Assembly: GCA_005888595.1 (NCBI GenBank)
Contig: VBAL01000117.1
Span: 1-32,199 of the forward strand
DNA: 32,199 bases
Source of the DNA: Candidatus Segetimicrobium genomatis
GTDB taxonomy: Bacteria; Sysuimicrobiota; Sysuimicrobiia; Sysuimicrobiales; Kaftiobacteriaceae
Direction: 5' to 3'
Shown: positions 1,228-30,558 of the stretch, one piece after another
Numbering within the stretch: the stretch's first letter is position 1
How the letters are laid out: every line of letters begins with the position of its first letter
Made by a program: the position numbers and the translations under genes
The notes under the pieces: model-generated
What the model was told of the DNA's origin: nothing
What the model saw: the letters and a program-made list of their open reading frames with translations, nothing else
Databases searched by the model: none

Positions 1228-1297
1228 CGGGATTGGGGATTAGGGGTTGGGAAACCGCGCGTTGTGTCTAATCCCTAATCCCAAATCCCCAATCCCG
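1228..1297. repeat. Quasi-palindrome element 1 (GGGATT-word family)
   Basis: CGGGATTGGGGATT (1228-1241) is perfectly reverse-complementary to AATCCCCAATCCCG (1284-1297); both arms continue as degenerate 7-nt-period GGGATT words. Confidence 0.9.
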
Positions 1298-1315
1298 TAG
1301 TTGGGGGTGGCCGTT

Positions 1316-2122
1316 GTGGCCGAGCAAATTCGGGTCGCCATCGCCGGCGCGGCCGGCCGCATGGGCAGGACCGCCGTACGGGCGGTCGCAGGTGCGCCGG
1401 ATATGGTCCTGGCGGCCGCGCTGGGCCGCGAGCGCGGAGTAGGGCAGGACGCCGGCACGGTGGCGGGGACAACCCCCCTTGGGGTGAAGCTCACCGCCGA
1501 ACTGGCCGACGCCCTCGACGCAAAACCGGATGTCCTCATCGATTTCTGCCCCGGCGCGGCCGCGGCAGAACATGCCCGGGCGGCCATCCCAGCCGGCGTC
1601 CGTCCGGTGATCGGCGCCACAGGAATCAGTCAGCCCGACCTGGACAGTCTCGCGACCTTGTGTGGCTCGAAGCGGGTCGGTGCCATCGTGGCGCCCAACT
1701 TTGCGGTGGGTGCTGTCTTGATGATCGAGTTTGCCCGCCTGGCGGCACAATACTTCTCCAACGTCGAGATCATCGAACTTCACCATGATCGCAAACGTGA
1801 TGCCCCGTCCGGGACGGCGCTCCGAACGGCGGCGGTGGTGGCGGCCGCGCGTGGGTCACCTCCCACTCCGGCCGTGAAGGGAGAGGAGATGATCGTTGGG
1901 GTACGCGGCGGGAGGGCAGACGGCATTCCAGTCCACAGTGTCAGGTTGCCCGGACTCGTCGCGCACCAGGAAATCATCTTCGGTGGGCCTGGACAGACGC
2001 TGACAATCCGGCATGACTCCGTCAACGAGGAGTCATTCATGCCCGGCCTGATGCTCGCGGTCCGCAAGGTGCGGTCGCTGACAGGACTGGTAGTTGGGCT
2101 GGAGAAACTCCTGGAACTATAG
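1316..2122 (+). CDS. dapB: 4-hydroxy-tetrahydrodipicolinate reductase
   Basis: N-terminal Rossmann 'VAIAGAAGRMGR', 'ELHHDRKRDAPSGTA' motif, C-terminal 'HSVRLPGLVAHQEIIFGGPGQTLTIRHDS'; GTG start at 1316 preferred (TTG at 1301 also in frame). Confidence 0.95.
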   Translation: MAEQIRVAIAGAAGRMGRTAVRAVAGAPDMVLAAALGRERGVGQDAGTVAGTTPLGVKLTAELADALDAKPDVLIDFCPGAAAAEHARAAIPAGVRPVIGATGISQPDLDSLATLCGSKRVGAIVAPNFAVGAVLMIEFARLAAQYFSNVEIIELHHDRKRDAPSGTALRTAAVVAAARGSPPTPAVKGEEMIVGVRGGRADGIPVHSVRLPGLVAHQEIIFGGPGQTLTIRHDSVNEESFMPGLMLAVRKVRSLTGLVVGLEKLLEL

Positions 2123-2186
2123 TTGGAAGGTTGGAGAGTTGAAAAGTTGGAGAGGCGATGATGTGCGTGGTCTGACTCTCCAACTC
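2121..2186. repeat. Quasi-palindrome element 2 (GTTGGA-word family)
   Basis: Four 8-nt units GTTGGAAG GTTGGAGA GTTGAAAA GTTGGAGA (2122-2153); AGTTGGAGAG (2145-2154) pairs with CTCTCCAACT (2176-2185). Confidence 0.85.
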
Positions 2187-2215
2187 AGAGGACAGGACTG
2201 GACGTAGATGAGACC

Positions 2216-3177
<962 letters not shown>

Positions 3178-3179
<2 letters not shown>

Positions 3180-3283
3180 TCTACCCGGTCTACCCTGTCT
3201 CCCCGGTCCACTGCACCACCTGAAAAGAAACCGAGAGTCTGGAGACTGTGAAGACTGAGGAGACCGGGAAGACCGGGAAGACT
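3178..3283. repeat. Quasi-palindrome element 3 (GTCTYCCCG-word family)
   Basis: AGTCTACCCGGTCTACCCTGTCTCC (3178-3202) vs GGAGACCGGGAAGACCGGGAAGACT (3259-3283): 22/25 complementary; 9-nt period in both arms. Confidence 0.9.
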
Positions 3284-3287
3284 CATC

Positions 3288-4532
3288 ATGAGAATCGTCA
3301 TCCAAAAATTCGGGGGAGCATTACTTGCGACACCGGAGGGACGTCTGCAAGTCGCCGAGCTCATCACCGCCACGCGGAAGCAAGGAAGCCGCGTCGTGGC
3401 CGTCGTCTCTGCCATCGGGCGCGAAGGCAACCCCTACGCGACCGACACCCTGATGGGTTTGATGCGGGAGATCGGGAGTGACATCAACCCGCGCACGCTC
3501 GACCTGCTGCTCTCGACGGGGGAGATCATCTCGACGGCCGTGCTGGCACACACCCTCGTGCGGGCCGGCTGCCCGGCCATCGCCCTCACCGGCGCCCAGG
3601 CGGGGATCTTTACGACCGACGAGTTCAACGACGCTCGCATCCTCAGCATCGATGCCGCCCGCACGCGGGCGCACCTCGAACGCGACCAGGTCGTGGTCGT
3701 CGCCGGCTTCCAGGGGGTTACGCCTGATGGCGAGATTACGACGCTGGGCCGCGGGGGCAGCGATACCACCGCCGTGGCCATCGGCGCGGCGCTGGGCGCC
3801 GAGGTTGTGGAAATCTACAAAGACGTCCCGGGCATCATGACCGCCGATCCCAAGCTGGTGCCCGGGGCCCGGCCGATCCAGCGGATCACGTACGATGAGA
3901 TGTCGCAGCTGGCGGCCCTGGGGGCGAGGGTGCTGCACCCGCGCGCCGCGGACATCGGTCGCGAACACAACGTGAAGTTGCTCATCAGACGGATGGGCAG
4001 TCTGAATGGAGGGACGTTGATCGTGAAAGGCCCGGAACTGGGTGTGCCGATCATCGACGGCCGGCCGGTCATCGCGCTCGCGCATCTGCCTGACGTCGTC
4101 CAGTTGAAGATCGAGCGCCGGCGGGGGGAGGATCTCTCGCGCCCGCTGGGGGCGCTGGCGGCGCTGGCCGAGCACGGGATCAGCATCGACCTGATCAACT
4201 TGCTGCCGGAGGTGCTGGCGTTTACGGTGAAGGAGGAGGCTGTCCCGCAGGCGGCCAACCTTCTCTCCAAACTCGGTTATGAGGTACACGTCAGCGGCCC
4301 GTGCGCAAAGGTGTCGATCATCGGCGCTGGGATGCGCGGCCGGCCGGGCGTGATGGCGCGGGTGGTGAAAGCGTTGCACGACGCCGGGGCGGAGATCCTG
4401 CAAACGGCGGACTCGCACACCACGATCTCCTGCCTGGTATGGCGGGAACAGTTGCCGCGGGCCCTCAATGCCCTCCACGAAGAGTTTGGGCTGGCCGCAG
4501 AAGTCGCGTCGGAGCGAGAGGCGGAAGGTTAG
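3288..4532 (+). CDS. lysC: Aspartate kinase with C-terminal ACT domains
   Basis: '[17 protein letters not shown]', '[41 protein letters not shown]', C-terminal ACT-like '[29 protein letters not shown]'; DapG-like position upstream of dapA. Confidence 0.95.
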
Positions 4533-4542
4533 GGGGAGTCAA

Positions 4543-5430
4543 ATGTCGTTCTTCGGCAGGGTTCTCACCGCCATGGTGACGCCGTTCGATGAGGCCGCCA
4601 ATGTCGACTACCCTCAGGCTGCGGCGCTGGCCAAGCGGCTGGCCGATTCGGGGTCGGATGGGATTGTCGTGGCGGGAACGACCGGAGAGTCTCCCACGCT
4701 CACCGATGAAGAAAAGATCCGGTTGTTTGGGACGGTGAAAGAAGCCGTGGCCGGCCGGGCCGTGGTCGTGGCCGGTACCGGCACCAACGACACCCGGCAT
4801 TCGATCCATCTGACCAAGGACGCCGGACGCGCCGGCGCCGACGCGTTCCTCCTGGTCAACCCATATTACAATCGCCCCTCTCAGGACGGCCTGTACGCGC
4901 ACTTCAAGGCCATTGCCGAATCCACCGGCAAGCCGTGCATGCTGTACAATATCCCGGGCCGGACCGGCGTGAACTGCACGCCGGACACGATTGCCAGGCT
5001 CGCTGAAGTCCGCAACATCGTCGCGGTGAAGGAAGCCAGCGGCATTCTGGATCAGGCGTCGGAGATCCGCCGGAAGACTCCCGCCGCGTTCGAGATCTAC
5101 AGCGGCGACGACAGCTTGACCTTGCCGATTCTCTCGGTCGGCGGACGTGGGATCGTCAGCGTGGCCTCCCACCTGGTGGGGCCGGACATCCAGGAGATGG
5201 TGCGCTCGCACGAACGCGGGGACGTCCGTACGGCACTGCAGATACACCTGCGGCTGTTTCCGCTGTTCAAGGTGCTCTTCATCACCACGAATCCCGTACC
5301 GGTCAAGGCTGCGCTCAACCTCAGCGGGTTCCGCGTCGGCAAACCACGCCTACCCCTCGTGGAGGCGACAGAGAAGGAGAAGGAGCAGATTCAGGCGGTC
5401 CTCAAGGAACTGGCGCTGGTGGCCGTTTGA
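4543..5430 (+). CDS. dapA: 4-hydroxy-tetrahydrodipicolinate synthase
   Basis: 'TAMVTPFDE', '[14 protein letters not shown]', '[14 protein letters not shown]', '[10 protein letters not shown]', 'VAVKEASG'; ATG at 4543 after GGGGGAG. Confidence 0.96.
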
Positions 5431-5439
5431 CACGAAACT

Positions 5440-5531
5440 GCGGGCCCAGGGGACCACGGAACCAAGGGACCCGCAGGATTCTGTAGGCTTGGTCCCCTGG
5501 TGACCTGGTTCTCCTGGTCGCCTGATCCCGC
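5440..5531. repeat. Quasi-palindrome element 4 (GGGACC/GGAACC-word family)
   Basis: CCAGGGGACCA (5446-5456) pairs with TGGTCCCCTGG (5490-5500); outer GCGGG (5440-5444)/CCCGC (5527-5531); degenerate ~8-9 nt words on both sides. Confidence 0.82.
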
Positions 5532-5533
5532 GG

Positions 5534-6124
5534 ATGCCTCGACGCACAAAATCCCCAAAGACTCGTGCTCTTGCCCAACTGCACGATCGCATCCGGCGTT
5601 GCGACCGCTGCCCCCTCCACCGCACGCGCACTGAGGCCGTCCCCGGAGTTGGCCCCGCCTCCGCGCGCATCATGCTCGTCGGCGAGGCCCCCGGGCGGCA
5701 GGAGGATCTCACGGGCCAGCCATTTGTCGGGGCGGCAGGCAAGTTCCTCGATGAGCTACTGGCGTCTGTCGGGCTGTCGCGTTCAGACGTCTACATCACC
5801 AACGTCGTGAAGTCTCGCCCGGTCTCGGGACCACCGCCGGGGCGCAACCGCGCGCCCACACCCGCGGAGATCGCCGCCTGCGTGCCCTGGCTGCAGGAGC
5901 AACTCGGCATCCTCCGTCCGAAAGTCATCGTCACCCTCGGCCGCGTCGCGTTGGACTACTTCCTGCCGGGACGCAGGATCGCCGACGTGCATGGCCGGTC
6001 CATCCCGCAGGGCCCTGTCACCATACTCCCCCTCTATCATCCGGCGATGGTCCTGTACAGGAGAGACTGGGTGCGAATGCTAAGGAAGGATTTCAGGAAC
6101 CTCCGGCGCTTCCTTGACGAGTAA
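5534..6124 (+). CDS. Uracil-DNA glycosylase, type-4/5-like
   Basis: 'CDRCPLHRTRTEAVPGVGP', 'IMLVGEAPGRQEDLTGQPFVGAAGKFLDELL', 'TNVVKSRPV', 'YHPA'; Fe-S cysteine pattern typical of family 4 UDGs. Confidence 0.92.
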   Translation: MPRRTKSPKTRALAQLHDRIRRCDRCPLHRTRTEAVPGVGPASARIMLVGEAPGRQEDLTGQPFVGAAGKFLDELLASVGLSRSDVYITNVVKSRPVSGPPPGRNRAPTPAEIAACVPWLQEQLGILRPKVIVTLGRVALDYFLPGRRIADVHGRSIPQGPVTILPLYHPAMVLYRRDWVRMLRKDFRNLRRFLDE

Positions 6125-6161
6125 CCGCTGACGCGACGGCTGGGGGGAGAGGGGACTATCC

Positions 6162-6986
6162 ATGCGCGTGATGGTGTGGGCCGACATCGAAGGGGTAGCC
6201 GGGATCACGTCGTGGGAGCATACCGGCGGCGGGACCCCGCTGTATGAAGAAGGCCGGCGGCTCTACACCGAGGAAATCAACGCGATCGTACGCGCCTGCC
6301 GGCGCGCCAAGGCCGATGATGTCATCGTGGTCGATGGGCACGGGGGTGGATACGAAGGCGCGCGGGGGTTCATGAGCCTCATCCCCGACCGGCTGGAACG
6401 CAGCGCACGCTACGTTCTGGGCCACGCCTGGGCCAGGTATGTCGAACCGCTCACCCAGGGTTGCGACGCGGTCCTCTTGGTGGGCGCGCATGCCAAAGCG
6501 GGCACGCCTGACGGCGTTCTGTCCCACACCGTCTCATCGGAATCGTGGTACCTGGCAACCATCAACGGCGCGCCGGTCGGCGAATCGGGCATTGTCGCCG
6601 CCATCGCAGGATGCTGGAATGTCCCGGCCGTGTTTGTGGCGGGGGACGAGGCGACGTGTAAAGAGGTTCAGGAGTTGGTCGGGGCGACCGTGGTCACCGC
6701 CCCGGTGAAGAAGGGTCTGGGGCGATTCTCGGCCGTCCATCTCGCCCCCGCCGACGCCTGCACGCTCATCGAGACCAGAGCGGGAGAAGCGCTGGTGAAC
6801 CGTGCGCGGTGGCCAAAGCCGCTGACGTTCGCCGCTCCGGTGACGTTTCAGGTCGAGCTGGCCACTCCTGATCGTCTCGCATCGTTCGAAGGCCGCACCG
6901 GCGTCGAGACGGTTGGACCCCGCACGGTCAGCGCGACCGGCAAGAACTTCTGGGAAGCCTGGAACGCGCTGTGGTATCGCTACTGA
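6162..6986 (+). CDS. M55 family (DppA-type) D-aminopeptidase
   Basis: 'MRVMVWADIEGVAGITSWEH', 'DDVIVVDGHGGG', 'LVGAHAKAGTPDGVLSHT' match the DppA family. Confidence 0.93.
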   Translation: MRVMVWADIEGVAGITSWEHTGGGTPLYEEGRRLYTEEINAIVRACRRAKADDVIVVDGHGGGYEGARGFMSLIPDRLERSARYVLGHAWARYVEPLTQGCDAVLLVGAHAKAGTPDGVLSHTVSSESWYLATINGAPVGESGIVAAIAGCWNVPAVFVAGDEATCKEVQELVGATVVTAPVKKGLGRFSAVHLAPADACTLIETRAGEALVNRARWPKPLTFAAPVTFQVELATPDRLASFEGRTGVETVGPRTVSATGKNFWEAWNALWYRY

Positions 6987-7069
6987 AGGAGAGCCCTCCG
7001 CGGGCATAGAACGTGTTGCGTCGAACATTCAGACGCACCTAACATCGCACCTTTCAAAGGAGCGCGTAC

Positions 7070-7873
7070 GTGCTAAATATGGTCATCCTGGGCCTGGTCC
7101 AGGGCCTGACGGAGTTTTTGCCGGTCAGCAGCACGGCCCACCTCATCTTCGCCGAGGCCTTTCTCGGAATACCCCGTCCCGGAATCCTTTTAGAAGCCGT
7201 CCTGCACCTCGGCACCGCCCTCGCCGCGCTTGTCGTCCTATGGGGCGAGGTCCGCAAGCTGGTCACGGGATGGGGCATGTCCATAACGCAGAAATTCCCG
7301 GACGCAACCACTCAGTCGTACGGGCGGCTCGCCTGGTTGATCATTCTGGTCACGGCCATCACCGCCGCCGCGGGCCTCACCTTGGAGAGACCTCTGGAGT
7401 CTATGTTCGGCTCAGTGCGCGGGACGGCCGTGCAATTGATCCTCACCGGTGGGCTCCTGCTCCTCGCTCAGGAGCGAGGCCGGCGCGCGATGCTTGACGC
7501 GACGCCTGCCGATGCGGTGGCGATCGGCGTCGCGCAGGCCATCGCCATTGTCCCCGGGATCTCGCGGTCGGGCACAACGATCACCGCCGGCATGTGGATG
7601 GGGCTACGGAAAGAGGAGGCGGCGCGGTTTTCGTTCCTGGCGGCCATCCCGGCGGTCGCCGGTGCGGGGATACTGGGGCTGAAGGATCTTCGGCTCGGTC
7701 TCGGCATGGGGTATACTCCGGCACAGTTGCTTACGGGTTTCGCCGTCGCGGCGCTTTCAGGCGGGGTAGCCATCCGGTGGCTGCTGTCCGTGCTGCGCCG
7801 GGGGCGCCTGAGCTACTTCGCCGCGTACTGTCTGCTCGCCGGCGCGGCGGTGCTCTTCTTCACAAAGGGGTAG
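7070..7873 (+). CDS. uppP: Undecaprenyl-diphosphatase (BacA/UppP)
   Basis: 'GLVQGLTEFLPVSSTAHL' and 'GVAQAIAIVPGISRSGTTITAG' signature motifs; multipass hydrophobic; GTG start after AAAGGAG. Confidence 0.96.
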   Translation: MLNMVILGLVQGLTEFLPVSSTAHLIFAEAFLGIPRPGILLEAVLHLGTALAALVVLWGEVRKLVTGWGMSITQKFPDATTQSYGRLAWLIILVTAITAAAGLTLERPLESMFGSVRGTAVQLILTGGLLLLAQERGRRAMLDATPADAVAIGVAQAIAIVPGISRSGTTITAGMWMGLRKEEAARFSFLAAIPAVAGAGILGLKDLRLGLGMGYTPAQLLTGFAVAALSGGVAIRWLLSVLRRGRLSYFAAYCLLAGAAVLFFTKG

Positions 7874-7878
7874 GAGCT

Positions 7879-10161
7879 GTGGCGCGCAGGAAACGGACCA
7901 CCAATCGTCTTCACGCCGGCGGCGCCGTCGCGCTGGTCGGCGGGCTGGTGCTGGCGCTCTCGTTTCTTCCCGGAGCGACGGGCGTGCCGCTGGTCCTGGA
8001 ACACGTCCAGCGGGTCGCGCTGGGCGATGGCGCGTGGCTGATTCCACTGGCAGGCGTGCTGGGTGGGATCGCCCTGCTCCGCGCGTCAGAGCATTCACGC
8101 CTCGGCCGGAGAGCGTGGGGTGCCGCCCTGATTGCGCTGGTCTCCGTTGCCGCGTACCACGCGCGGGTCCCACGGGGCGCGGAATGGTCCACCGGCCTCA
8201 ACGCCGGCGGCGGGGGCGTGGTCGGCGGCGCACTCCTCTGGGTGCTGCGCCGGGCGTTTGGTGAGACGGGCGCATGGTTGATGCTGGCGCTGAGTGCGAT
8301 CGGCGGGGCCCTGCTGTGGTCGAATGTCTCGTTGGCCGCAGCGGTCGGTGGTATGCTGTCCGCCATCCAATGGACCGCGGCAGAGTTGGTCCAGGCCGCA
8401 CTGGCCATCTGGCAGCTCGGCGCCGGCGGTGCGGTGGCTGCGGTGAGTATCGTTACATCGTCGGCGGCGGCCCTGGCGCACGCCATCTGGCGGAGCGCGC
8501 GGGCGGCAGCCGATCGTGTCGGCGCGGTCTTGCAACCGATGCAGCTTCCCGCCACGACGGAGCCTCCACGGGTACCTACGGGGGCCCGACGCGTGGACAC
8601 ATTGGTCGCGGAGGTGTCACGCCCCGGGGCCGTCGACGGAGAGAAGCGGGTCGCCGGCGTACCGCCGGGTCGGGGCCAGCAGGTTCGCGCCAGCACGGGC
8701 GAGGCGTTCAGGCAGGAAGCGCTCGCGCTTGAAGTCCCCTCCGGCGGGTATCAGTTGCCCCCGTCCACGCTGCTCACCGACCTGCCATCGTCGCGCGGCA
8801 AGGCGAAGACTGAGCCCGCGGACCTGGCTAAGCAGCTGGAACAGACGCTGACCAGTTTCGGTGTTGAGGCGAAGGTCACACGCTGGGAGCAGGGGCCCGT
8901 GGTGACGCGGTTTGAGGTACAGCCGGCGCCTGGGGTCCGCGTCCAGAAGATCAGCAGCCTGACCAACGATATCGCGCTGGCCCTGGCGGCGCCCAGCGTG
9001 CGCATCGAGGCCCCCATCCCCGGCAAGTCCGCGGTCGGCATCGAGGTACCCAATCAAAAAACGGCGCTGGTCCATATCAAAGAGATCCTGGCGTCGGATG
9101 AGTACCAGCGGACGGCCGGCCCGCTCGTCGTCCCAGTGGGCAAAGACATCGCCGGCCATCCTATCCTGGCCGATCTCGCTGAGATGCCGCATCTGCTTAT
9201 CGCCGGGGCGACGGGCTCAGGGAAATCGGTTACGCTGAACGCCGTCATCGCCGGTCTGCTGTTCCGGTGCACTCCCGTGGACGTGCGGCTGCTGATGATC
9301 GATCCCAAACGGGTGGAGTTCACCAATTACAACAACGTGCCGCATCTGCTGATCCCCGTGGTCACCAACCCGCGCGCCGCCGCAGGCGCGCTGCGGGAGA
9401 TGCTGCGGGAAATGGAGGAGCGGTTTGAGCGCTTCGCCGCCACCGGGACGCGGAACATCCAGGCATACAATCAGCTCACCGACGTGGAGCACCTGCCGTA
9501 CCTCGTGATCATCGTCGATGAACTGGCCGACCTGATGATGGTCGCGCCGGCCGACTTTGAAGACGTCATCTGCCGTCTCGCCCAGATGACCCGGGCCACG
9601 GGGATTCACATGGTGGTGGCGACGCAGCGACCGTCGGTGGATGTCATCACAGGGCTGATTAAAGCGAACATTCCGTCCCGCATCGCCTTCGCCGTCAGCA
9701 GTCAGGTGGACAGCCGCACCATCCTGGATATGCCGGGCGCAGAGAAACTGCTCGGGAAAGGCGACATGCTGTACCTGCCGATGGGCGCCGCGCGGCCCAC
9801 GCGGGCGCAGGGCGCGTTCATCGCCGACAGCGAGATTCAGGCGCTGGTCGCCTGGTGGAAGACCCAAGGCCGGCCGGCATATGATCAGGACCTGCTGCGG
9901 GCCGAAGCGGGCAGCGCGGAAGCCAGCGGAGATGAAGACGCCCTGCTGGCCGACGCCGCCCGGCTGATCGTGAGGGCGGGATACGGCTCGGTGTCGCTGC
10001 TGCAGCGTAAGATGAAGATTGGCTACGTCCGCGCCGCCCGCATCGTCGATCAGCTGGAAGAAAAAGGCATTGTCGGACCCGCCCAGGGCAGCAATCCCCG
10101 CGACGTGCTGGTCGGACTGGAAGAACTCGAGCGCCTGATCAAGACCGGTTCCGCGTCCTAA
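7879..10161 (+). CDS. ftsK: FtsK/SpoIIIE DNA translocase
   Basis: N-terminal TM helices, 'HLLIAGATGSGKSVTLNAVIAGLLF' Walker A, 'VIIVDELADLMMVAP' Walker B, C-terminal winged-helix gamma domain 'GYGSVSLLQRKMKIGYVRAARIVDQLEEKGIVGPAQGSNPRDVL'; GTG at 7879 in frame. Confidence 0.95.
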   Translation: MARRKRTTNRLHAGGAVALVGGLVLALSFLPGATGVPLVLEHVQRVALGDGAWLIPLAGVLGGIALLRASEHSRLGRRAWGAALIALVSVAAYHARVPRGAEWSTGLNAGGGGVVGGALLWVLRRAFGETGAWLMLALSAIGGALLWSNVSLAAAVGGMLSAIQWTAAELVQAALAIWQLGAGGAVAAVSIVTSSAAALAHAIWRSARAAADRVGAVLQPMQLPATTEPPRVPTGARRVDTLVAEVSRPGAVDGEKRVAGVPPGRGQQVRASTGEAFRQEALALEVPSGGYQLPPSTLLTDLPSSRGKAKTEPADLAKQLEQTLTSFGVEAKVTRWEQGPVVTRFEVQPAPGVRVQKISSLTNDIALALAAPSVRIEAPIPGKSAVGIEVPNQKTALVHIKEILASDEYQRTAGPLVVPVGKDIAGHPILADLAEMPHLLIAGATGSGKSVTLNAVIAGLLFRCTPVDVRLLMIDPKRVEFTNYNNVPHLLIPVVTNPRAAAGALREMLREMEERFERFAATGTRNIQAYNQLTDVEHLPYLVIIVDELADLMMVAPADFEDVICRLAQMTRATGIHMVVATQRPSVDVITGLIKANIPSRIAFAVSSQVDSRTILDMPGAEKLLGKGDMLYLPMGAARPTRAQGAFIADSEIQALVAWWKTQGRPAYDQDLLRAEAGSAEASGDEDALLADAARLIVRAGYGSVSLLQRKMKIGYVRAARIVDQLEEKGIVGPAQGSNPRDVLVGLEELERLIKTGSAS

Positions 10162-10261
10162 GGCCCCGGTCGCGCCTGCCAGGAATTCTCTCGGACCGAC
10201 ACGAAGTGTACGCGGGTCACCCCAACCCCAAGCTTATGAACTCACGGGAGGTGCGTCGAGC

Positions 10262-11320
10262 ATGAGAACTGGAATGCGCGTCGCCGCTGCGCTGCTGGTC
10301 GTGGTGGCGGCCATTCTCTGGGCGATCCCCGGACCGCAGGCCACGGCTCAGACCAAGAAGTGGCGCGTAGGCATTGTCTATGACGTCGGCGGGCGCGGCG
10401 ATCTGTCGTTCAATGACATGGCCTACGCGGGCCTGGCCCGCGCGCAGAAGGAATTCGGGGCCAGTATCGAGACCCGGGACCTCGAACCCACCGCCGGCGG
10501 GGAGAACCGCGAGGAGCTCCTGCGGCTGTTGGCTGGGGAGAAGTACGATCTGATCTTCGGGATCGGGTTCCTCTTCACCGACAGCATCACCCGTGTGGCC
10601 AAGGATTTCCCGAACGTCAAGTTCGCGATCGTCGACGGGTTTATCGGTGATCAGCCCAACGTGGTCAGCCTGCTCTTTAAGGAGCAGGAGGGATCCTTCC
10701 TGGTCGGCGCCGCCGCGGCGCTGAAGTCCCGGACCGGAAAGATCGGGTTCGTCGGCGGCATGAAGATCCCCCTCATCGAAAAGTTTGAAGCCGGCTACAT
10801 CGCCGGCGCCAAATATATCAAGCGGACCATCGAAGTCTTCAGCGAGTATGCCGGCACCACCGGCGAGGCGTTCCGCGATCCCGTCAAGGGGAAAGAACTG
10901 GCCCTGGCGGAGTACGATCGCGGCGCGGACATCATCTACCACGCCTCGGGCGGCACAGGCATCGGCGTGTTCGAAGCCGCTGTGGTGAAGAAACGGCTGG
11001 CGATCGGCGTCGACGCAGACCAGTCGCTGACCGTCAAACCGGACCAGCGGGCGCAAATCCTGACCAGCATGATGAAGCGGGTGGACGTGGCCGTCTACGA
11101 GACCATCAAGGCCACGACCACCGGGCAGTACAAAGGCGGCGTGCGGGAGTTTGGGCTGAAGGAGAACGGGGTCGGGTATGCCGTCAACGACTACAACAAG
11201 GCGATGATTCAAGACGTCACCGCCAAGTTGGAGGCCCTGAAGAAAGATATCATCGCCGGGAAGATCAAGGTCCCGTCGGACAAGAAGCTACTCGAGGAGT
11301 TCCTCAAGACGCTGAAGTGA
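10262..11320 (+). CDS. BMP family (PnrA/Med-like) nucleoside ABC transporter substrate-binding protein
   Basis: Signal peptide 'MRTGMRVAAALLVVVAAILWAIPGPQATAQ', 'VGIVYDVGGRGDLSFNDMAYAGLARA', 'IIYHASGGTGIGVFEAA'; SD GGGAGGTG upstream. Confidence 0.94.
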   Translation: MRTGMRVAAALLVVVAAILWAIPGPQATAQTKKWRVGIVYDVGGRGDLSFNDMAYAGLARAQKEFGASIETRDLEPTAGGENREELLRLLAGEKYDLIFGIGFLFTDSITRVAKDFPNVKFAIVDGFIGDQPNVVSLLFKEQEGSFLVGAAAALKSRTGKIGFVGGMKIPLIEKFEAGYIAGAKYIKRTIEVFSEYAGTTGEAFRDPVKGKELALAEYDRGADIIYHASGGTGIGVFEAAVVKKRLAIGVDADQSLTVKPDQRAQILTSMMKRVDVAVYETIKATTTGQYKGGVREFGLKENGVGYAVNDYNKAMIQDVTAKLEALKKDIIAGKIKVPSDKKLLEEFLKTLK

Positions 11321-11341
11321 GCCGATCAATTGAGCCATCCG

Positions 11342-11374
11342 GGGGTGGGGGCGCAGCCTCCACCCCTCTTTTTT
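11342..11374 (+). terminator. Intrinsic terminator/attenuator between BMP gene and ABC ATPase
   Basis: GGGGTGGGGGC (11342-11352) - gca - GCCTCCACCCC (11356-11366), 11-bp stem with one G-T wobble, then TCTTTTTT. Confidence 0.85.
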
Positions 11375-11386
11375 CGCGAAATCATC

Positions 11387-12918
<1,532 letters not shown>

Positions 12919-12922
<4 letters not shown>

Positions 12923-14052
12923 AGGGCCGCCTGCTTCTCCTGCAGGTCGCGACGCCGGTGCTGGCCATCTTCTTTGGCATGCTCATCGCGTCCGTCATGA
13001 TCCTGGCCATCGGCCGCAACCCCATCGACGTCTATGCTGTAATGGTCCGGTTCAGTCTTACCCGCACTGACAGCCTCTTCTCGATCCTGTTCAAGACCAC
13101 GCCGCTCATCTTCGCCGGCCTGGCTGTCGCCATGTCGTTCCGGGCCAGCCTGTTCAACATCGGCGTGGAAGGACAGTACTACATCGGGGCGTTTTGTGCC
13201 GCGCTGGTCGGATTCGGCCTGAGAGGGTTACCGGCCGTTGTTCACCTGCCGCTGGCGCTCCTGGCGGCCGCGGGCGGCGGGATGGTGTGGGCGCTCGTGC
13301 CGATCGCACTGAAGCTGCGCCGGGGCGCGCACGAAGTGATCACCACGATCATGATGAACTACATCGCCTCCGCGCTGCTCCTCTATCTTATCAACGACGT
13401 CTTCCGCGATCCGACCCAGATCGGGACGCCCCGCGTGCGCACCCCCGTGGTGGCACCCGCGGCGCGCGTACCGTCGATGGGCCCGCTGCTGGCTCCGCTG
13501 GGGCTGCATGGATCCGACGTGGAGAAACTCAACCTGCTCCTGCCGCTGGGCATCGCTGTCGCGGTCGTTCTGGCCTACTTCCTCAGCCGCACGCGGTTTG
13601 GCTATGAAGTGCGCGCGGTGGCGTTCAACCCGCTGGCCGCGGAAGCAGCCGGCATTCCCAACGCGCGCGTGCAGTTCGGGATGTTCATGCTCAGCGCCGG
13701 CATCGCCGGCCTGGTGGGGCTCAACGACATCTTGGGCTTCTTCGGATACCTCGACATCGACTTCCCCAAGGGACTCGGCTTCCTCGGGATCTCCGTGGCG
13801 CTGCTGGCCAAGAACAACCCCCTGGGAGTCATTCCGGCGGCCCTGCTGTTCGGCTTTCTGGACCGCGGGGCGGCGGGGGTGCAGTTCTTCGCCAGGGTGC
13901 CCAAAGAGATCATCGTCATCTTGCAGGCGATCATCATTCTGGCCATCGTCGTAGCGTACGAACTGCTGACCCGGTACGTGCGCACACAGCGCAAACGCGA
14001 GGCGGAGTTGGTGGTGACGGCAACACCGGCGGCGGAAACGGCCGGAAGTTGA
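12919..14052 (+). CDS. Nucleoside ABC transporter permease (YufP-like)
   Basis: Overlaps ATPase gene by ATGA; 'FRASLFNIGVEGQYYIGAF' and 'GAHEVITTIMMNYIA' BPD_transp_2 motifs. Confidence 0.94.
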
Positions 14053-14142
14053 AGAGTTGGAGAGTTGGAACGTTGGAGAGCCAAAGTCCACTGGTAAGGA
14101 AGCGCAGTAATCCAACCTTCCAACTCTCCAACTTTCCAACTA
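14047..14142. repeat. Quasi-palindrome element 5 (GTTGGA-word family)
   Basis: 14047-14077 vs 14111-14141: 28/31 complementary, including 16-bp perfect AGTTGGAGAGTTGGAA (14055-14070)/TTCCAACTCTCCAACT (14118-14133); 8-nt period. Confidence 0.93.
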
Positions 14143-14161
14143 CTGTGGAGACACCTGTGCG

Positions 14162-15133
14162 ATGGAATATGTAGCCTCCCTATTCAGCGTGGCCCTCATC
14201 GCATCGGCGATTCGGGTCACGATGCCGATCCTGCTGGCATCGCTCGGTGCGGTGTACACCGAGCGGGGCGGAGTCGTGAACATCGGGCTGGAAGGCATCA
14301 TGATCATGGGCACGTTCTTCGGGGCAGTCGGCGCCTACCTCTTTGACGCGCAGTTTCCCCAGCTGGCCCAGGGGTGGCCGGACCTGGCGCCGCTCGCCGG
14401 GGTGCTGACCGCCATGGCGGCGGGTCTCCTGTTCGGGCTGATCCACGCGCTGGTGACGGTTACATTCCGCGTGGATCAGATCATCAGCGGCGTGGCGCTC
14501 AACCTGCTGGCCGGTGGTCTGGCGCGCTTCCTCAACATCCTGCTCTTCGAGAGGGCCACCCAGTCCCCCGGCGTGCGCGGGTTCACGCCCATCGACATTC
14601 CTCTCCTGCGGGACGTCCCGGCCCTGCGACCGCTGGTCACGGGAGTATCACCAATGATTGTCGTGGGATTGCTGCTGGTCATCGCGAGCCAGTGGGTGCT
14701 GACGCGCACCCGGTTCGGCCTGCGCCTGCGCGCCGTGGGTGAGTACCCGTTGGCCGCGGACACTCTCGGGGTCAACGTGTATCGCCTGAGGTATGCGGGT
14801 GTCCTGCTGAGCGGGGCGCTGGCAGGGATGGCGGGTGCGTATCTGGCCATCGAGCAGGCGCATCTGTACTTTGAAGGCATGACGCAGGGCAGGGGGTTCA
14901 TCGCCCTGGCGGCCATGATCTTTGGGAACTGGTGGCCCGCCGGCGCGCTGGGCGCATCGGCATTGTTCGGCTACTTCGATGCGCTGAGCCTCCGCGTGGT
15001 GCGGCTGCCTGTGCCGTACCAGTTCATTAGCGTCCTGCCCCACATCGTCACCATTCTGGTGCTGGCCGGATTCGTCCGGCGGGCGCGGATGCCGGCCGCC
15101 GACGGAGTGCCGTATACAAAAGAAGAAGAATAA
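14162..15133 (+). CDS. Nucleoside ABC transporter permease (YufQ-like)
   Basis: 'TERGGVVNIGLEGIMIMGTFFGAV', 'VDQIISGVALNLLAGGL', 'GRGFIALAAMIFGNWWPAGAL'. Confidence 0.94.
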   Translation: MEYVASLFSVALIASAIRVTMPILLASLGAVYTERGGVVNIGLEGIMIMGTFFGAVGAYLFDAQFPQLAQGWPDLAPLAGVLTAMAAGLLFGLIHALVTVTFRVDQIISGVALNLLAGGLARFLNILLFERATQSPGVRGFTPIDIPLLRDVPALRPLVTGVSPMIVVGLLLVIASQWVLTRTRFGLRLRAVGEYPLAADTLGVNVYRLRYAGVLLSGALAGMAGAYLAIEQAHLYFEGMTQGRGFIALAAMIFGNWWPAGALGASALFGYFDALSLRVVRLPVPYQFISVLPHIVTILVLAGFVRRARMPAADGVPYTKEEE

Positions 15134-16987: not shown

Positions 16988-17087
16988 GGAACCGTGGTAT
17001 CAGGGGACCAAGGAACCGGCAGGCCACGATGAAGCAACGCGTTGCGTCTTGCATGCTTGGTCCCGGGTCCCATGGTCCCCTGGTTCC
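16988..17087. repeat. Quasi-palindrome element 6 (GGGACC/GGAACC-word family)
   Basis: CAGGGGACCA (17001-17010) pairs with TGGTCCCCTG (17073-17082); GGAACC (16988-16993) pairs with GGTTCC (17082-17087); loop contains palindrome GCAACGCGTTGC (17034-17045). Confidence 0.82.
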
Positions 17088-18339: not shown

Positions 18340-18917
18340 GTGAGGGGCACCGCATCTTCATCGCCGTGGAGCTCGATTCGACGCTCCACCAAGCCGTCAT
18401 CGACCTACAACACCAACTGGAGGCGGCTGGGGCGAGAGTCCGGTGGAACAAACCAGCCCAGCTCCACTTCACGTTGCGTTTCATCGGCGCGGTCACGCCG
18501 GCGCAGGTCGCCCTCGTCAAGGTCGCCACGCGCGAAGCGGTCAACGAGGTCACGCCGTTCACCATCGCGTTGCGGCAGCTCGGAGCGTTTCCCAGTCTTC
18601 ACCGCCCGCAGATATTGTGGGTTGGTGTCGAGGACGGCGCGGCAGAGTTGCAGGCGCTGGCGGCCAAACTCGAAACGCAACTGGCCCACCACCGCTTCCC
18701 GCCCGAGGAGCGACCGTTCAGGCCCCATCTGACCCTGGCGCGGATCCGCGATGAGCGGCAGTGGGGAGACGTGGTGCGTGCGTTGACCCAGTTCCGCGAT
18801 TTCGGCGTCGGGTCCCAGCGGGTGCAGGCGGTGACGGTGATGGAGAGTGAGCTGACCCCCCGAGGACCCGTTTACACACGGGTTGAGGAGGTCAGTCTAC
18901 AAGGCTACGAGAAGTAG
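18336..18917 (+). CDS. thpR: RNA 2',3'-cyclic phosphodiesterase (2'-5' RNA ligase family)
   Basis: Two HxT motifs: 'LHFTLRFIG' and 'FRPHLTLARI'; ATGA overlap with cinA. Confidence 0.94.
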   Translation: MSEGHRIFIAVELDSTLHQAVIDLQHQLEAAGARVRWNKPAQLHFTLRFIGAVTPAQVALVKVATREAVNEVTPFTIALRQLGAFPSLHRPQILWVGVEDGAAELQALAAKLETQLAHHRFPPEERPFRPHLTLARIRDERQWGDVVRALTQFRDFGVGSQRVQAVTVMESELTPRGPVYTRVEEVSLQGYEK

Positions 18918-18943
18918 TAGTTGCAGCTAGCCGGGTTGGGCTA

Positions 18944-18972
18944 TTGACAAGCGAACAAATGTTTGGTAGACT
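18944..18972 (+). promoter_or_regulatory. Sigma70-type promoter of recA (TTGACA-N17-TAGACT)
   Basis: TTGACA at 18944-18949, TAGACT at 18967-18972, 17-nt spacer, directly upstream of recA. Confidence 0.88.
18952..18965 (+). promoter_or_regulatory. LexA (SOS) box, Gram-positive type
   Basis: CGAACAAATGTTTG fits the GAAC-N4-GTTY Firmicute/Actinobacteria-type LexA site and lies wholly inside the -35/-10 spacer. Confidence 0.88.
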
Positions 18973-19021
18973 GCGCGCACCAAATCAAGGCTGAGGCGGG
19001 CCAGCGCTGGAGGTCACGTCG

Positions 19022-20083
19022 ATGAATGAACGGCAGCGAGCCCTCGATCTCGCCCTGACGCAGATCGAGAAGCAGTTCGGCAAGGGTTCCATCATGAAGC
19101 TGGGAGAGGCCAGCACCAAGCTGGCCGTTGAGGTGATCCCGACCGGGGCGCTGGGACTCGATCTCGCGCTGGGCGTGGGCGGAGTCCCGCGCGGCCGTGT
19201 CATTGAAGTATACGGACCCGAGTCGTCCGGCAAGACGACGCTGGGCTACCATATCATCGCCGAAGCGCAGCGCGAAGCGGGAGTGGCGGCGTTCATCGAC
19301 GCCGAGCATGCTTTGGACCCCAACTACGCCAAATCGGTCGGTGTGGATGTCGACAGCATGCTGATCTCCCAGCCGGACTCCGGCGAGCAGGCGCTAGAGA
19401 TCGCCGAGATGCTGGTGCGCAGCGGCGCCGTGGACGTGATCGTCGTCGATTCGGTAGCCGCGCTGGTGCCCAAAGCCGAGCTCGAAGGTGAGATGGGGGA
19501 GGCGCACATGGGACTGCAGGCCCGGCTGATGTCGCAGGCCCTGCGCAAGCTGGTCGGGGCGATCAGCCGGTCGCGTACCACCGTGGTGTTCATCAACCAG
19601 ATCCGTGAGAAGATCGGCGTCATGTTCGGCAACCCCGAGACCACCACCGGTGGGCGGGCACTAAAATTCTATGCCTCGGTGCGCATGGAGATCCGGCGTA
19701 CGGAGAGCATCAAGGTGGGCGAGGAGATCAAGGGCATGCGCGCCCGGGTCAAAGTCGTGAAGAACAAACTGGCCCCGCCGTTCCGCGATGCAGAAGTCGA
19801 CATCTATTTCGGGCATGGCATCTCCAAAGCGGCCAGCACGCTCGACGTCGCGGCGCTCCACGGCATCGTACAGCGCACCGGCACCTGGTTTTCGTTCGGC
19901 GAGTTGAAATTGGGCCAAGGCCGCGACAACGCACGCGACTTCCTGGACGCCAACCCGGAGGTGACCCGGGAGATCGAGCGCCGTGTGCGGACGCACCTGG
20001 GGCTCGTCAAGCCTGCGCCCGCTGCGCCGGCGGAAGCGCGTGACGGACCGCCTGCCAGGGAGCCGGCGAAGGGTAGAGCGTAG
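19022..20083 (+). CDS. recA: Recombinase RecA
   Basis: '[13 protein letters not shown]', '[13 protein letters not shown]', '[31 protein letters not shown]'; SD GGAGGT at 19009-19014. Confidence 0.99.
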
Positions 20084-27197: not shown

Positions 27198-27286
27198 GAT
27201 TTATGAAGTAGGGCAGTGCTACCCATATCTGGTTTGAGGTGAGAGCGCGCGCGACGTATATACAACCCTAGAGGAGGGAACCCGCC

Positions 27287-28822
27287 ATGACATCCCCGAT
27301 TTTGCAAATAGCCCTGGCGGGGTTCGCCGGATTTCTTCTGGGATATCTGCTGCGCAGGTACGTTGCCGAGGCGCGGATTAAGTCGGCCGAAGAGGCCGCC
27401 CGACGGATCATCGAGGATGCTGGCAAAGAGGCCGAGGCGAAGAAACGTGAAGCGATCGTTGAGGCCAAAGACGAGTCGTTCCGCCAAAAGCGTGAGGCGG
27501 AGCGGGAGATCCGCGAGCAGCGGGCCGAACTGCAGCGTCTTGAGCGACGACTGGAACAGCGCGAAGAATCCCTGGATCGCAAGACGGAGGCCCTAGAGAA
27601 CCGGGAACGAACCCTGACTGAGAAGGAGCAAGAGCTCGTCCGGGCCCGTGACGAGGCCCAGGCGCAGCAAGCCCGCCACCAGGAGGAACTGGAGCGGGTG
27701 TCTGGACTGACCGCAGAGCAGGCGCGCGAGCAACTCCTGCGACAGGTAGAGGCGCAGGCGCGCGCCGACGGACTCAAGCTGGTTAAGAAGATCGAAACCG
27801 AGGCCCGGGAAGATGCCGACCGCCGGGCTCGGGAGATCATTGCCCTCGCGATTCAGCGGTGCGCCGCAGATCACACCGCTGAGGTCACCGTCTCGGTCGT
27901 TCCTCTGCCCAACGACGACATGAAAGGCCGCATTATCGGCCGCGAGGGAAGGAACATCCGCACTCTCGAAGGTCTCACCGGCGTCGACTTTATTATCGAT
28001 GATACGCCCGAAGCCGTGACGCTGTCGTCGTTTGACCCCATCCGCCGCGAGATCGCCAAGATCGCACTGGAGAAGCTTATCGTCGACGGGCGCATCCACC
28101 CCGCGCGGATCGAGGAGATGGTGGAGAAGTCCCAGCGTGAGCTGGAGCAGCGCATCCGTGAAGAAGGGGAGCGCGCGGCCTTTGAAGCCGGCGTACACGG
28201 CCTGCACCCGGAAGAGATCAAGCTGATGGGCCGGTTGCGCTTCCGGTATTCCTACGGTCAGAATCTGCTGGCCCACTCCGTAGAGGTGGCGTTGCTGTCG
28301 GGCCTGATCGCGGGGCTGCTGGACGGCGATGCGCAGCTGGCCCGCCGCGCCGGGTTCCTCCACGACATCGGCAAAGCGCTGACGCACGAAGTCGAGGGTA
28401 CGCACAGCTCGATCGGCGTGGACATCTGCCGGCGCTATCACGAACCACCGGAAGTCTTGAACGCCATTACGTACCACCACGGAGACGAAGAGGCGAAGTG
28501 CATCGAAGCGGTATTGGTCGCCGCGGCCGACGCCATCTCGGCCAGCCGGCCCGGGGCACGCAAGGAGACCGCCGAGATGTACGTCAAGCGGTTGGAGGGA
28601 TTGGAGCGCATCGCGACGTCGTTCCCGGGAGTGGAGAAAGCATACGCCATCCAGGCCGGGCGCGAAGTACGCGTGCTGGTCCGGCCGACCGATATCGATG
28701 ACCTGGGCGCGCAGGCGCTGGCGCGTGATGTCGCCAAGAAGATCGAAGAGGAGATGGAGTACCCCGGCCAGATCAAAGTGACCGTGATGCGGGAGACGCG
28801 CGTCGTCGAGTACGCGCGCTAA
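27287..28822 (+). CDS. rny: Ribonuclease Y
   Basis: N-terminal TM helix, coiled coil, KH '[35 protein letters not shown]', HD domain '[16 protein letters not shown]'; SD GAGGAGGG. Confidence 0.98.
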
Positions 28823-29616
28823 TGAGGATTCTGTTCGTCGGCGATGTGCACGGCAAGCCGGGCCGCCGCATCTTGCGGGACCGGCTCGCGAAGCTACGCC
28901 AGGCGCATGACCTGGCGCTGGTCATTGTGAACGGGGAGAACTCCGCCGGCGGCGCCGGGATCAACTCCGAGGTGGCTCAGGAGTTGTTTGGCGCTGGGGC
29001 GGATGCCATCACCGGCGGCAACCACACCTGGCAGCTCCGCGAGGCCTATGAACTCCTGGACAGCGACCCGCGCATCCTTCGCCCGCTGAACTATCCACCC
29101 GGGGCGCCGGGCCGCGGGGCCACGGTCGTCACGGGACGCATGGGTACGCCGGTCGGCCTCATCAACCTCCAGGGCCGAGTCTTCATGCGGGAGCTCGACG
29201 ACCCGTTTCGCGCTGCGCGGGCAGAGTGCGAGCGGCTGCGCGAACGCGCGCCGGTCATCGTGATCGACATGCACGCCGAGGCAACCAGCGAGAAGATTGC
29301 GTTGGGTTGGTACCTGGACGGCCACTGCAGCGCGGTGATCGGCACCCACACCCACGTCCAGACCGCCGACGAGCGCGTCCTGCCCCAGGGAACCGCGTAC
29401 ATCACCGATGTGGGCATGACCGGTCCTCGCGATGGCGTCATCGGCATGGACCGGGAGGGCATCCTGGAACGGTTTCTCACGCAACTGCCGGTGCGCTTCG
29501 AGGTGGCATCCGGCCCGGCGCAACTCAATGCGGTGGTCGTCGACGTGGACGAGTCGACGGGGCGGGCCCGGTCCATCACCCGCGTCAGGGAATTCGAGGA
29601 GACGAATGCGGATTGA
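28822..29616 (+). CDS. ymdB: YmdB family (TIGR00282-like) metallophosphoesterase
   Basis: '[22 protein letters not shown]', 'NGENSAGGAGI', 'DAITGGNHTW', 'IDMHAEATSEKIALGWYLDG', 'GTHTHVQTADERVLPQGTAYITDVGMTGP'; adjacent to rny. Confidence 0.96.
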   Translation: MRILFVGDVHGKPGRRILRDRLAKLRQAHDLALVIVNGENSAGGAGINSEVAQELFGAGADAITGGNHTWQLREAYELLDSDPRILRPLNYPPGAPGRGATVVTGRMGTPVGLINLQGRVFMRELDDPFRAARAECERLRERAPVIVIDMHAEATSEKIALGWYLDGHCSAVIGTHTHVQTADERVLPQGTAYITDVGMTGPRDGVIGMDREGILERFLTQLPVRFEVASGPAQLNAVVVDVDESTGRARSITRVREFEETNAD

Positions 29617-30436
29617 CCTGCACACCCACACAACTGCGTCGGACGGATTGCTGGCGCCTGAGCCACTCGTGGCGCTGGCCCACGACGCAGGCGTGGGAGT
29701 GCTCGCCGTCGCAGATCATGACAGCACCGATTCCGTCGATCCGGCGATCACCGCCGGGGCGCGGGTGGGGATGGAAGTCATCCCCGCAGTAGAGATCAAC
29801 ACCGACGTGCATGAGTCGGAAATCCACATCCTGGGATATTACGTCGACCATCACCAGCCGTGGTTTCAAGAATTTCTCGGGAGGCTTCGCGACGGTCGCC
29901 TAAACCGCGCGGCGAAAATGGTGGAGAAGCTCAACGCCATGGGGGTCCGCCTTGACTTCGCGCGCGTGCGCGCGCTGGCCCAAGGAGCGGTCGGACGTCC
30001 CCATGTGGCCCGGGCTCTAGTGGAGGCAGGCGTAGTGAGCAGCACCGAAGAGGCGTTTGAGAAGTACCTCGGGCGGAATGGCCCAGCCTACGTGGAGCGC
30101 ATGAAGCTGAGCCCGCCTGAGGCGGTGCAGGTGATTCTGCGCACGGGTGGGATTCCCGTCCTGGCACACCCAGGATGGGGGGTGAAAGACGAGGTGATTC
30201 CGGCTCTGGCCGAGACCGGGCTGGAAGGCCTGGAAGTCTACTATCCCGACCACACCCCCGCGATGGTCACCCGATATCTCGAGATCGCCAAGCGGGTGGG
30301 TCTTCTGGTCACCGGCGGGACCGATTTTCATGGAGGGGACTTGGCCACGAAAGTGCCGCCGGGAAGCCAGTATGTGCCAGTGGAATGTGTGGAGAAACTG
30401 AGAGAGCGGCATGGGGCGAAGAAGGTCAGGAAGTAG
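29606..30436 (+). CDS. PHP domain phosphoesterase
   Basis: 'RIDLHTHTTASDGLLAPEPLVALA', 'LAVADHDSTDS', 'EIHILGYYVD', 'PVLAHPGW', 'VTGGTDFHGG'; ATG at 29606 overlapping the end of ymdB. Confidence 0.94.
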   Translation: MRIDLHTHTTASDGLLAPEPLVALAHDAGVGVLAVADHDSTDSVDPAITAGARVGMEVIPAVEINTDVHESEIHILGYYVDHHQPWFQEFLGRLRDGRLNRAAKMVEKLNAMGVRLDFARVRALAQGAVGRPHVARALVEAGVVSSTEEAFEKYLGRNGPAYVERMKLSPPEAVQVILRTGGIPVLAHPGWGVKDEVIPALAETGLEGLEVYYPDHTPAMVTRYLEIAKRVGLLVTGGTDFHGGDLATKVPPGSQYVPVECVEKLRERHGAKKVRK

Positions 30437-30558
30437 AACGCAGAACGCAGCAGGCAGAACGCAGAGTATATAACAGGGCATACCATGCAAAACGCGGTAA
30501 TCTCCGATACATGTGGGCAACGCAGTCTGCGTTCTGCTTTCTGCGATCTGCGTTCTAC
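30433..30558. repeat. Quasi-palindrome element 7 (GAACGCA-word family)
   Basis: GTAGAACGCAGAACGCAGCAGGCAGAACGCAGA (30433-30465) vs TCTGCGTTCTGCTTTCTGCGATCTGCGTTCTAC (30526-30558): 30/33 complementary; 7-nt period. Confidence 0.93.

What the first reader, a model, noticed from the sequence alone, without database searches (positions are those of the whole stretch)
1228..30558. Family of seven intergenic word-array quasi-palindromes with a shared architecture but different sequences
Seven intergenic gaps (1228-1297, 2121-2186, 3178-3283, 5440-5531, 14047-14142, 16988-17087, 30433-30558) carry the same design. The left arm holds about 3-5 degenerate copies of a 7-9 nt word, followed by a non-conserved loop of roughly 20-60 nt and a right arm that is the reverse complement. 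Words differ between loci, so these are not copies of one REP/MITE sequence, yet the arms at each locus match (22/25, 28/31, 30/33 at the best three). They occupy seven of about twelve gaps longer than 60 nt, and I saw none inside CDSs. This implies a process that creates or maintains an inverted arm from a short tandem word at each site, such as fork template switching plus slippage, a templated polymerase/RT activity, or selection for an RNA hairpin. None has a U-tract, so they are not ordinary intrinsic terminators. I do not know of a named class for them and cannot search to confirm novelty.
Basis: partly seen in the sequence, partly recalled or inferred. Interest (0 to 1): 0.88.

Follow-up and report, generated by a model that had tools for sequence, protein, structure and literature searches.

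The report
Turnover-prone word-array hairpins between genes
Between many genes of this uncultured soil bacterium lie hairpins built from a few copies of a short 7-9 letter word on each arm; they resemble repeats known from cyanobacteria and Xanthomonas, but here there are many words, and close relatives often carry a different word, or no hairpin, in the same gap.

Summary
All seven gaps contain word-array hairpins. In 357 kb of the same genome the detector finds 91 strong hairpins (72 word-like, period 7, 8 or 9) against 1-4 in shuffled sequence. Correction: the seven sites use five words, two of them used twice. Words fall into about ten recurring families with fixed polarity (word on the 5' arm).

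The organism belongs to the genus of 'ANGP1' (Sysuimicrobiota). Against a relative with 95% identical genes, hairpin gaps keep the same word in 27 of 65 cases, carry a different-word hairpin in 18, and none in 15. Different-word coincidences exceed expectation (15 vs 4.4).

The arms are not in-register copies of each other, which argues against template switching at each site. No reverse transcriptase was found. Instead the words evolve in concert: cores barely change, while other letters change together across both arms.

Closest known: cyanobacterial STRR hairpins, Nostoc trnL P6b repeat classes, and convergent GGGAATC pairs in Xanthomonas. Verdict: a real, dense, multi-word variant of that poorly understood kind. 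The most likely mechanism is slippage plus ectopic repair copying between dispersed arrays, tolerated or used as generic intercistronic stem-loops. That mechanism is inferred.

The parts
1228..1297 (.). Hairpin, 7-nt word GGGATTN; arms 1228-1245 and 1280-1297. G001 has a CGGGAACG 8-nt hairpin in the same gap; in G002 the genes nearly abut
2121..2186 (.). Hairpin, 8-nt word AGTTGRAR; longer left array, short right arm 2175-2184. G001 has a longer right arm; G002 has only AGTT left
3178..3283 (.). Hairpin, 9-nt word GTCTNCCCR; arms 3178-3202 and 3259-3283. G002 has the same word; G001 has a deletion remnant
5440..5531 (.). Hairpin, 8-nt word GGRACCAR, imperfect; core arms 5446-5456 and 5490-5500. 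G001 has the same word; G002 has CGGGAACG
14047..14142 (.). Hairpin, 8-nt word AGTTGRAR; arms 14047-14077 and 14111-14141. First word overlaps the stop codon of the ORF ending at 14052. G001 has the same word; G002 keeps only a left-arm remnant
16988..17087 (.). Hairpin, 8-nt word GGRACCAR; arms 16996-17017 and 17066-17087 (82% complementary). G001 has the same word; G002 has a GGGAAAC-type 7-nt hairpin
30433..30558 (.). Hairpin, 7-nt word AGAACGC; arms 30433-30465 and 30526-30558. First word overlaps the stop codon of the ORF ending at 30436. G001 has the same word with a shorter right arm; G002 a degenerate remnant

Best explanation
These are dispersed, fast-turning intercistronic stem-loops of the STRR type: each arm is a short array (about 3-5 copies) of one degenerate 7-9 nt word, and each genome holds a lexicon of about ten word families. 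Shown: fixed polarity, whole-hairpin replacement between conserved flanks, word-number indels, loss with footprints, and concerted letter changes across the words of both arms. Inferred: arrays grow and shrink by replication slippage; the hairpin provokes breaks or fork stalls; repair copies words from other arrays in the genome by short-homology (ectopic) conversion. That keeps the family core uniform, spreads dialects, and sometimes replaces a hairpin with one of another family. Also inferred: the gap tolerates or uses any stem-loop there (transcript protection, insulation or termination without a U-tract), so the word itself is not required at a given gap.
For: Enrichment and families. Polarity: 275 hairpin pairs share 7-mers in the same polarity, 22 in the opposite. 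Position: median 5 nt after the stop codon and 19 nt before the next start for tandem gaps. Turnover: G0 vs G1 27 same, 18 different word, 5 other, 15 none; entire hairpin and loop replaced between conserved flanks. Different-word coincidence 15 against 4.4 expected, Fisher p 4e-7. Concerted change: 239 same-column same-letter pairs against 146 +/- 11 in 2000 permutations, e.g. GGGATT to GGGACT in nearly every word of both arms. In GTTG words, 7 substitutions in 460 core cells against 83 in 276 degenerate cells. Lineage-specific lexicon: TGGATNNTGGATNNTGGAT 13 / 0 / 3 hits in the three genomes, reversed control 0. Arms independent in word order. One whole-hairpin relative including the loop elsewhere in the genome, 88% over about 73 nt.
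Against: For 13 hairpins that are G0-specific or switched, only one had a whole-length relative above 85% elsewhere in the genome, so recent donors are mostly not seen; the assembly is about 88% complete. At locus L027:5182 the spacer letters changed in most words while the neighbouring variable letter kept its order, which whole-word copying does not predict. The excess of different-word coincidences could partly reflect gaps that differ in tolerance. No expression data exist here, so any function is inferred.
Confidence: 0.4

Rival explanations
1. Selection for a generic RNA stem-loop (transcript stabiliser, insulator or terminator) at particular gaps; words arise by chance and slippage and are interchangeable.
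For: Strong folding; sits directly after stop codons; different-word hairpins recur in the same gaps more than expected; of WC pairs changed on both sides, 13 remained WC against 4 that did not (G0-G1).
Against: Stem selection should protect all paired letters alike, yet core letters are nearly frozen and neighbouring paired letters vary freely. Arms diverge at 10% against 13% for loops and about 5% for flanking genes, so protection of the stem is weak. Fixed polarity is not predicted. Many gaps lose the hairpin outright. No U-tract follows the hairpins (sequence).
Confidence: 0.25
2. Mobile miniature elements (REP/MITE-like) moved by a transposase such as a REP-associated tyrosine transposase; word arrays are the element body.
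For: Filled and empty site pairs between relatives. Y1 transposase genes present, two per genome. Some flanks carry an AACTRC/GYAGTT-like motif (AACTGC 25 against 4.2 expected). GATTG-family loops look related.
Against: Loops are mostly unrelated within a family. No near-identical copies of recent gains. No word hairpins beside the four Y1 genes examined in this genus. Y1 genes also occur in relatives where small samples show few or no word hairpins.
Confidence: 0.15
3. De novo writing: a templated polymerase (telomerase-like or other) adds word arrays to both 3' ends of a break, giving word-loop-reverse complement with fixed polarity.
For: Predicts fixed polarity, independent arms sharing one word, whole words at the outer ends, an unconserved loop and lack of donors.
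Against: No RVT_1 reverse transcriptase in the three genomes or eight relatives. Needs many templates for many words. Related whole hairpins exist in at least one family.
Confidence: 0.08
4. The arms arise by fork template switching, each right arm copied from its left arm.
For: Arms are 0.90 identical in the best register.
Against: Word order between arms is no better than permuted (real mid-p 0.46; simulated copies 0.07-0.12; shuffled 0.53). Orthologues gain or lose words on one arm only.
Confidence: 0.04
5. Artefacts of metagenome assembly.
For: All three genomes are draft assemblies in many contigs.
Against: The same hairpins with similar loops are assembled at orthologous gaps in separate genomes at 95% and 83% gene identity.
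Confidence: 0.01

Closest known systems
Cyanobacterial short tandemly repeated repetitive (STRR) sequences that form hairpins (PMC2670836; also PMC2408588)
   Same: Intergenic, short (usually 7 bp) tandem words, able to form hairpins, many sites per genome, function unknown. The word ATTGCGAATTG is reported 79 times in Nostoc PCC 7120 and matches the GATTG family here.
   Different: Here 7-, 8- and 9-nt words and about ten families in one genome, at about 20 word hairpins per 100 kb. The same detector found 2 in 150 kb of a Trichormus plasmid; no cyanobacterial chromosome was tested.
Nostoc trnL(UAA) intron P6b repeat classes (PMC4476775)
   Same: Stem built from heptanucleotide words (TDNGATT or NNTGAGT), with repeated replacement of one word class by another at one site.
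   Different: A single site within a group I intron; here the replacement happens across many intergenic gaps and among many words.
GGGAATC / GGGGA(T/C)T heptamer repeats of Xanthomonas and Nostoc (PMC4692102)
   Same: Intergenic, close to the upstream ORF, 70-75 pairs in convergent orientation forming inverted repeats in Xanthomonas; the T/C alternation in the Nostoc word recurs here as GGGATT/GGGACT.
   Different: That study follows one word type; 83% of repeats were kept in the same gene context between two Xanthomonas species and described as stable; few inverted pairs in Nostoc.
TAACTGA direct repeats of Beggiatoaceae, cyanobacteria and Bacteroidetes (PMC4679880)
   Same: Intergenic heptamer arrays with a patchy cross-phylum distribution.
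   Different: Direct repeats with only one indirect repeat reported in the main genome, proposed as regulator-binding sites near start codons.
REP elements and RAYTs (PMC3733652)
   Same: Short intergenic palindromes downstream of genes, many copies.
   Different: REPs have a palindrome with a GTAG or CGTC tag; RAYT genes are flanked by GTAG repeats or terminal inverted repeats. No such conserved unit or flanking was found here.

Membership tests
STRR-type hairpins | Short tandem words (about 7 bp) in intergenic regions | tested here: met
   Periods 7, 8 and 9 (33/26/13 hairpins) and mostly intergenic
STRR-type hairpins | Ability to form a hairpin | tested here: met
   Fold z -2.5 to -9.0 at the seven sites
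STRR-type hairpins | Many dispersed copies of a word per genome | tested here: met
   36 hits of AGTTGGANNGTTGGA in the own genome, 0 in the reversed control
STRR-type hairpins | Common descent with cyanobacterial STRRs | tested here: inconclusive
   Same words seen (GTTGGA in a Microcoleaceae MAG; AATTGCG on a Trichormus plasmid, with opposite polarity); short words cannot prove descent
Convergent heptamer pairs (Xanthomonas GGGAATC) | Words in convergent orientation, so one fixed polarity | tested here: met
   275 same-polarity against 22 opposite-polarity pairs
Convergent heptamer pairs (Xanthomonas GGGAATC) | Position conserved between related species | tested here: not met
   Same word at 27 of 65 gaps at 95% gene identity against 83% of repeats in the published comparison
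REP/BIME | One conserved palindrome with GTAG or CGTC tag | tested here: not met
   Many different words, loops mostly not shared; only a partial flank motif
REP/BIME | Associated RAYT gene flanked by the repeat | tested here: not met
   Y1 genes present but no word hairpin beside the four examined in this genus
Intrinsic terminators | GC-rich stem followed by a U-tract | tested here: not met
   None of the terminator-like hits in window 1-20000 is one of the hairpins; site 30433 judged by eye, no T-run follows
Known Rfam RNA family | Match above gathering score | tested here: not met
   No match in the window
Retroelement-derived arrays | Reverse transcriptase in the genome | tested here: not met
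   No RVT_1 match in the own genome and ten relatives

The most novel reading that the evidence does not exclude
A dedicated word-writing or word-editing activity rewrites intergenic hairpins in place: it recognises a word core, alters the other letters of the words on both arms together, and can replace one word family by another at many sites within about 5% gene divergence.
Probability: 0.12. Interest if true: 0.92.

Novelty: new variant of a known kind. Interest (0 to 1): 0.62.

Why it matters
Short tandem word hairpins have long been known in cyanobacteria without an agreed origin or function. Three related genomes here carry many of them, in a lineage-specific lexicon, with empty sites, filled sites, footprints, dialect flips and full word switches at orthologous gaps. 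That makes it possible to ask directly how such arrays are born, spread, rewritten and lost. Hairpins built on the same GTTGGA word in Sysuimicrobiota, Gemmatimonadota, Acidobacteriota, Chloroflexota, a cyanobacterium and a Saprospiraceae MAG suggest a wider, little-described feature of bacterial intergenic DNA.

Tried and rejected
In-register copying between arms: a first test on polymorphic columns looked strongly positive (z 10.6) but was biased by choosing the best register; a word-order permutation test with power simulations removed the signal. Shared loops as a sign of copying: only short chance-level matches among loops in the sample, with one family as a partial exception. Terminal motif common to all families: AACTRC/GYAGTT is enriched but present at a minority of ends. 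Compensatory changes as proof of stem selection: most double changes belong to arrays whose words changed in concert. Species-wide change of a single trans-acting specificity: dialect flips go in opposite directions at different loci (G2 has C-type words at L010:8704 and A-type at L025:16997). Reverse transcriptase: none. Rfam: none. A plasmid search with a cyanobacterial-like word returned nothing, probably because the low-complexity filter is on. Three cyanobacterial plasmid accessions were not held.
Full report
Check of the observation. The strongest are 14047-14141 (28 of 31 paired) and 30433-30558 (30 of 33). Three sites (2121, 5440, 16988) are imperfect, but all seven fold better than nearly all shuffles (z -2.5 to -9.0), and these three are recognisable at the same place in a relative. 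Words are not all different: 2121 and 14047 share AGTTGRAR, and 5440 and 16988 share a GGRACC-type word.

Genome-wide. The window is contig C101 of a 2.94 Mb draft genome. In a 357 kb sample (window plus L009-L028) a detector for ungapped inverted arms finds 91 hairpins scoring at least 13, against 3, 4 and 1 in dinucleotide shuffles. Seventy-two have internal word periodicity; among periods 6-10 tested, only 7, 8 and 9 were found. The sample was taken partly from contigs known to hold AGTTGGA arrays, so its density may be somewhat high. AGTTGGANNGTTGGA alone occurs 36 times in the whole genome, mostly as plus/minus pairs a few tens of bases apart, and never in the reversed control. The same detector finds no word-like hairpin in 50 kb of E. 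coli K-12 and two in 150 kb of a Trichormus variabilis plasmid.

Whose genome. G000, G001 and G002 share a genus. In the window region G001 is about 95% and G002 about 83% identical. The AGTTGGA array is absent from the 38 other relatives searched, but other-word hairpins occur in two relatives of the same family, AGTCTACAC in G004 and CGGTCGT in G007.

Anatomy. Words have fixed polarity: pairs of hairpins share 7-mers in the same polarity 275 times and in the opposite polarity 22 times. Each word family has a nearly frozen core and specific free positions: GTTG-R-A-R-M (8 nt), GTCT-H-C-N-N-R (9 nt), GTGA-H-T-N (7 nt) (the four core letters were used to find the words, so only the other columns are independent evidence there). 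Between species the GTTG family shows 7 substitutions in 460 core cells and 83 in 276 free cells (the words were found by their core in one of the two genomes). Hairpins between co-directional genes lie right after the stop codon (median 5 nt) and before the next start (median 19 nt); contexts are 109 tandem, 17 convergent and 12 divergent (crude ORF caller). At 14047 and 30433 the first word overlaps the upstream stop codon. The outer ends sometimes carry an AACTRC / GYAGTT motif.

Comparison of orthologous gaps. At site 1228, G000 has GGGATT words, G001 CGGGAACG words, and in G002 the genes nearly abut. At 3178, G001 keeps only a deletion remnant while G002 has the same word. At 5440 and 16988, G002 has other words. 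At 14047 and 30433, G002 keeps remnants of the left arm. At 2121 and 30433 the right arm differs in length by about two words between G000 and G001. Over the larger sample, 65 G000 hairpins could be placed in G001: 27 same word, 18 different-word hairpin, 5 other, 15 none; against G002: 13, 12, 4 and 21. 'Different' here includes changes of dialect within a family as well as changes of family. At switched sites the whole hairpin, loop included, is replaced between conserved flanks. Among 218 compared gaps, non-shared hairpins of G000 and G001 fall in the same gap 15 times against 4.4 expected (Fisher p 4e-7); the excess is weaker for G000-G002 (10 vs 5.2, p 0.015) and not significant for G001-G002 (5 vs 3.1). 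The lexicon is lineage-specific: GGATCC-type words 5/0/0 and CGGGAAC-type 2/9/9 in similar amounts of sequence; whole-genome TGGATNNTGGATNNTGGAT 13/0/3 with no control hits.

Concerted change. In retained hairpins, substitutions fall in the same word column and to the same letter more often than chance (239 pairs vs 146 +/- 11, none of 2000 permutations reaches it). Examples: the GGGATT words of G001 read GGGACT in G002 on both arms (two loci); CGTTGAAA-type words in G000 read AGTTGAAG-type in G001 and G002 at L025:16997. At L027:5182 the spacer letters change from TAG/AAG to CAG to TTG in most words while the fifth letter largely keeps its order along the arms, which is not easily explained by copying whole words. 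Flips go in both directions at different loci, so a single genome-wide change of specificity does not explain them.

Arms are not ordered copies. In-register identity (0.90) is above the shifted value (0.81), but registers were chosen for best fit. When the order of words in one arm is permuted and the register re-optimised, real hairpins are no better than permuted ones (mean mid-p 0.46, se 0.04); simulated copies with 10% mutation give 0.07 and shuffled arms 0.53. Each arm therefore behaves as an independent array of the same word.

Mechanism. Not shown directly. The best-supported account is slippage within arrays plus hairpin-provoked repair that copies words from other arrays, which would homogenise cores, spread dialects and occasionally swap families, in gaps where any stem-loop is tolerated or useful. 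Its main weakness is the lack of near-identical donors for 13 recent or switched hairpins (one at 88%). Rivals are generic RNA-stem selection, REP-like mobility and de novo writing. No reverse transcriptase domain was found; Y1 transposases exist, but the ones examined in this genus are not flanked by word hairpins.

Known relatives. Cyanobacterial STRR sequences form hairpins from 7-bp repeats in intergenic regions, function unknown (PMC2670836). Nostoc trnL P6b stems use one of two heptamer classes, one of which has repeatedly replaced the other (PMC4476775). Xanthomonas GGGAATC repeats occur 70-75 times as convergent pairs (PMC4692102), mostly conserved in place. TAACTGA direct repeats occur in Beggiatoaceae, cyanobacteria and Bacteroidetes (PMC4679880). 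Hairpins with the GTTGGA word were found in MAGs of Gemmatimonadota, Acidobacteriota, Anaerolineales, Ardenticatenales, Microcoleaceae and Saprospiraceae; a 40 kb Anaerolineales sample held seven word-like hairpins. The one paper on Sysuimicrobiota genomes found by the search does not contain the word 'repeats' (PMC11604079). The finding is therefore a new, multi-word, high-turnover variant of a known but unexplained kind.

Limits. Draft MAGs; sampled stretches rather than whole genomes; a simple ORF caller; ungapped hairpin detection; three species; no expression data; a literature library that lacks most subscription journals, including the original STRR papers. Gap-to-gap differences in tolerance could inflate the coincidence of different words.

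Noticed in passing
window 2881-2883 (asd gene): Both relatives carry about 61 nt more inside asd at this point; the window's copy is split over two frames (ORFs 2216-3055 and 2841-3179). A deletion in this strain or an assembly error.
   Followed up: partly
L011:11494, L017:2461, L018:3205, L026:10956 and similar: A separate non-word palindrome family with CCCGTWCCAA arms (13 matches of the 10-mer in 357 kb), REP-like; its link to the Y1 transposases was not tested.
   Followed up: no
L012:13542, L019:11154: Another palindrome family, CACTCGACTCGCC.
   Followed up: no
L233-L252, L043, L056: Word-like hairpins with other words in Anaerolineales (AGTAGTC, AAGGATG), Gemmatimonadota (AGACATC) and a Saprospiraceae MAG (AGTTGATGAA, period 10).
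   Followed up: partly
G045 (genome of L056), pattern search: In the Anaerolineales genome the reversed control pattern also has 118 hits against 249, so other arrays there may use related words.
   Followed up: no
window 17748-17821: A hairpin without word periodicity inside an ORF (GCACCTGCGCCTGACCGC arms).
   Followed up: no
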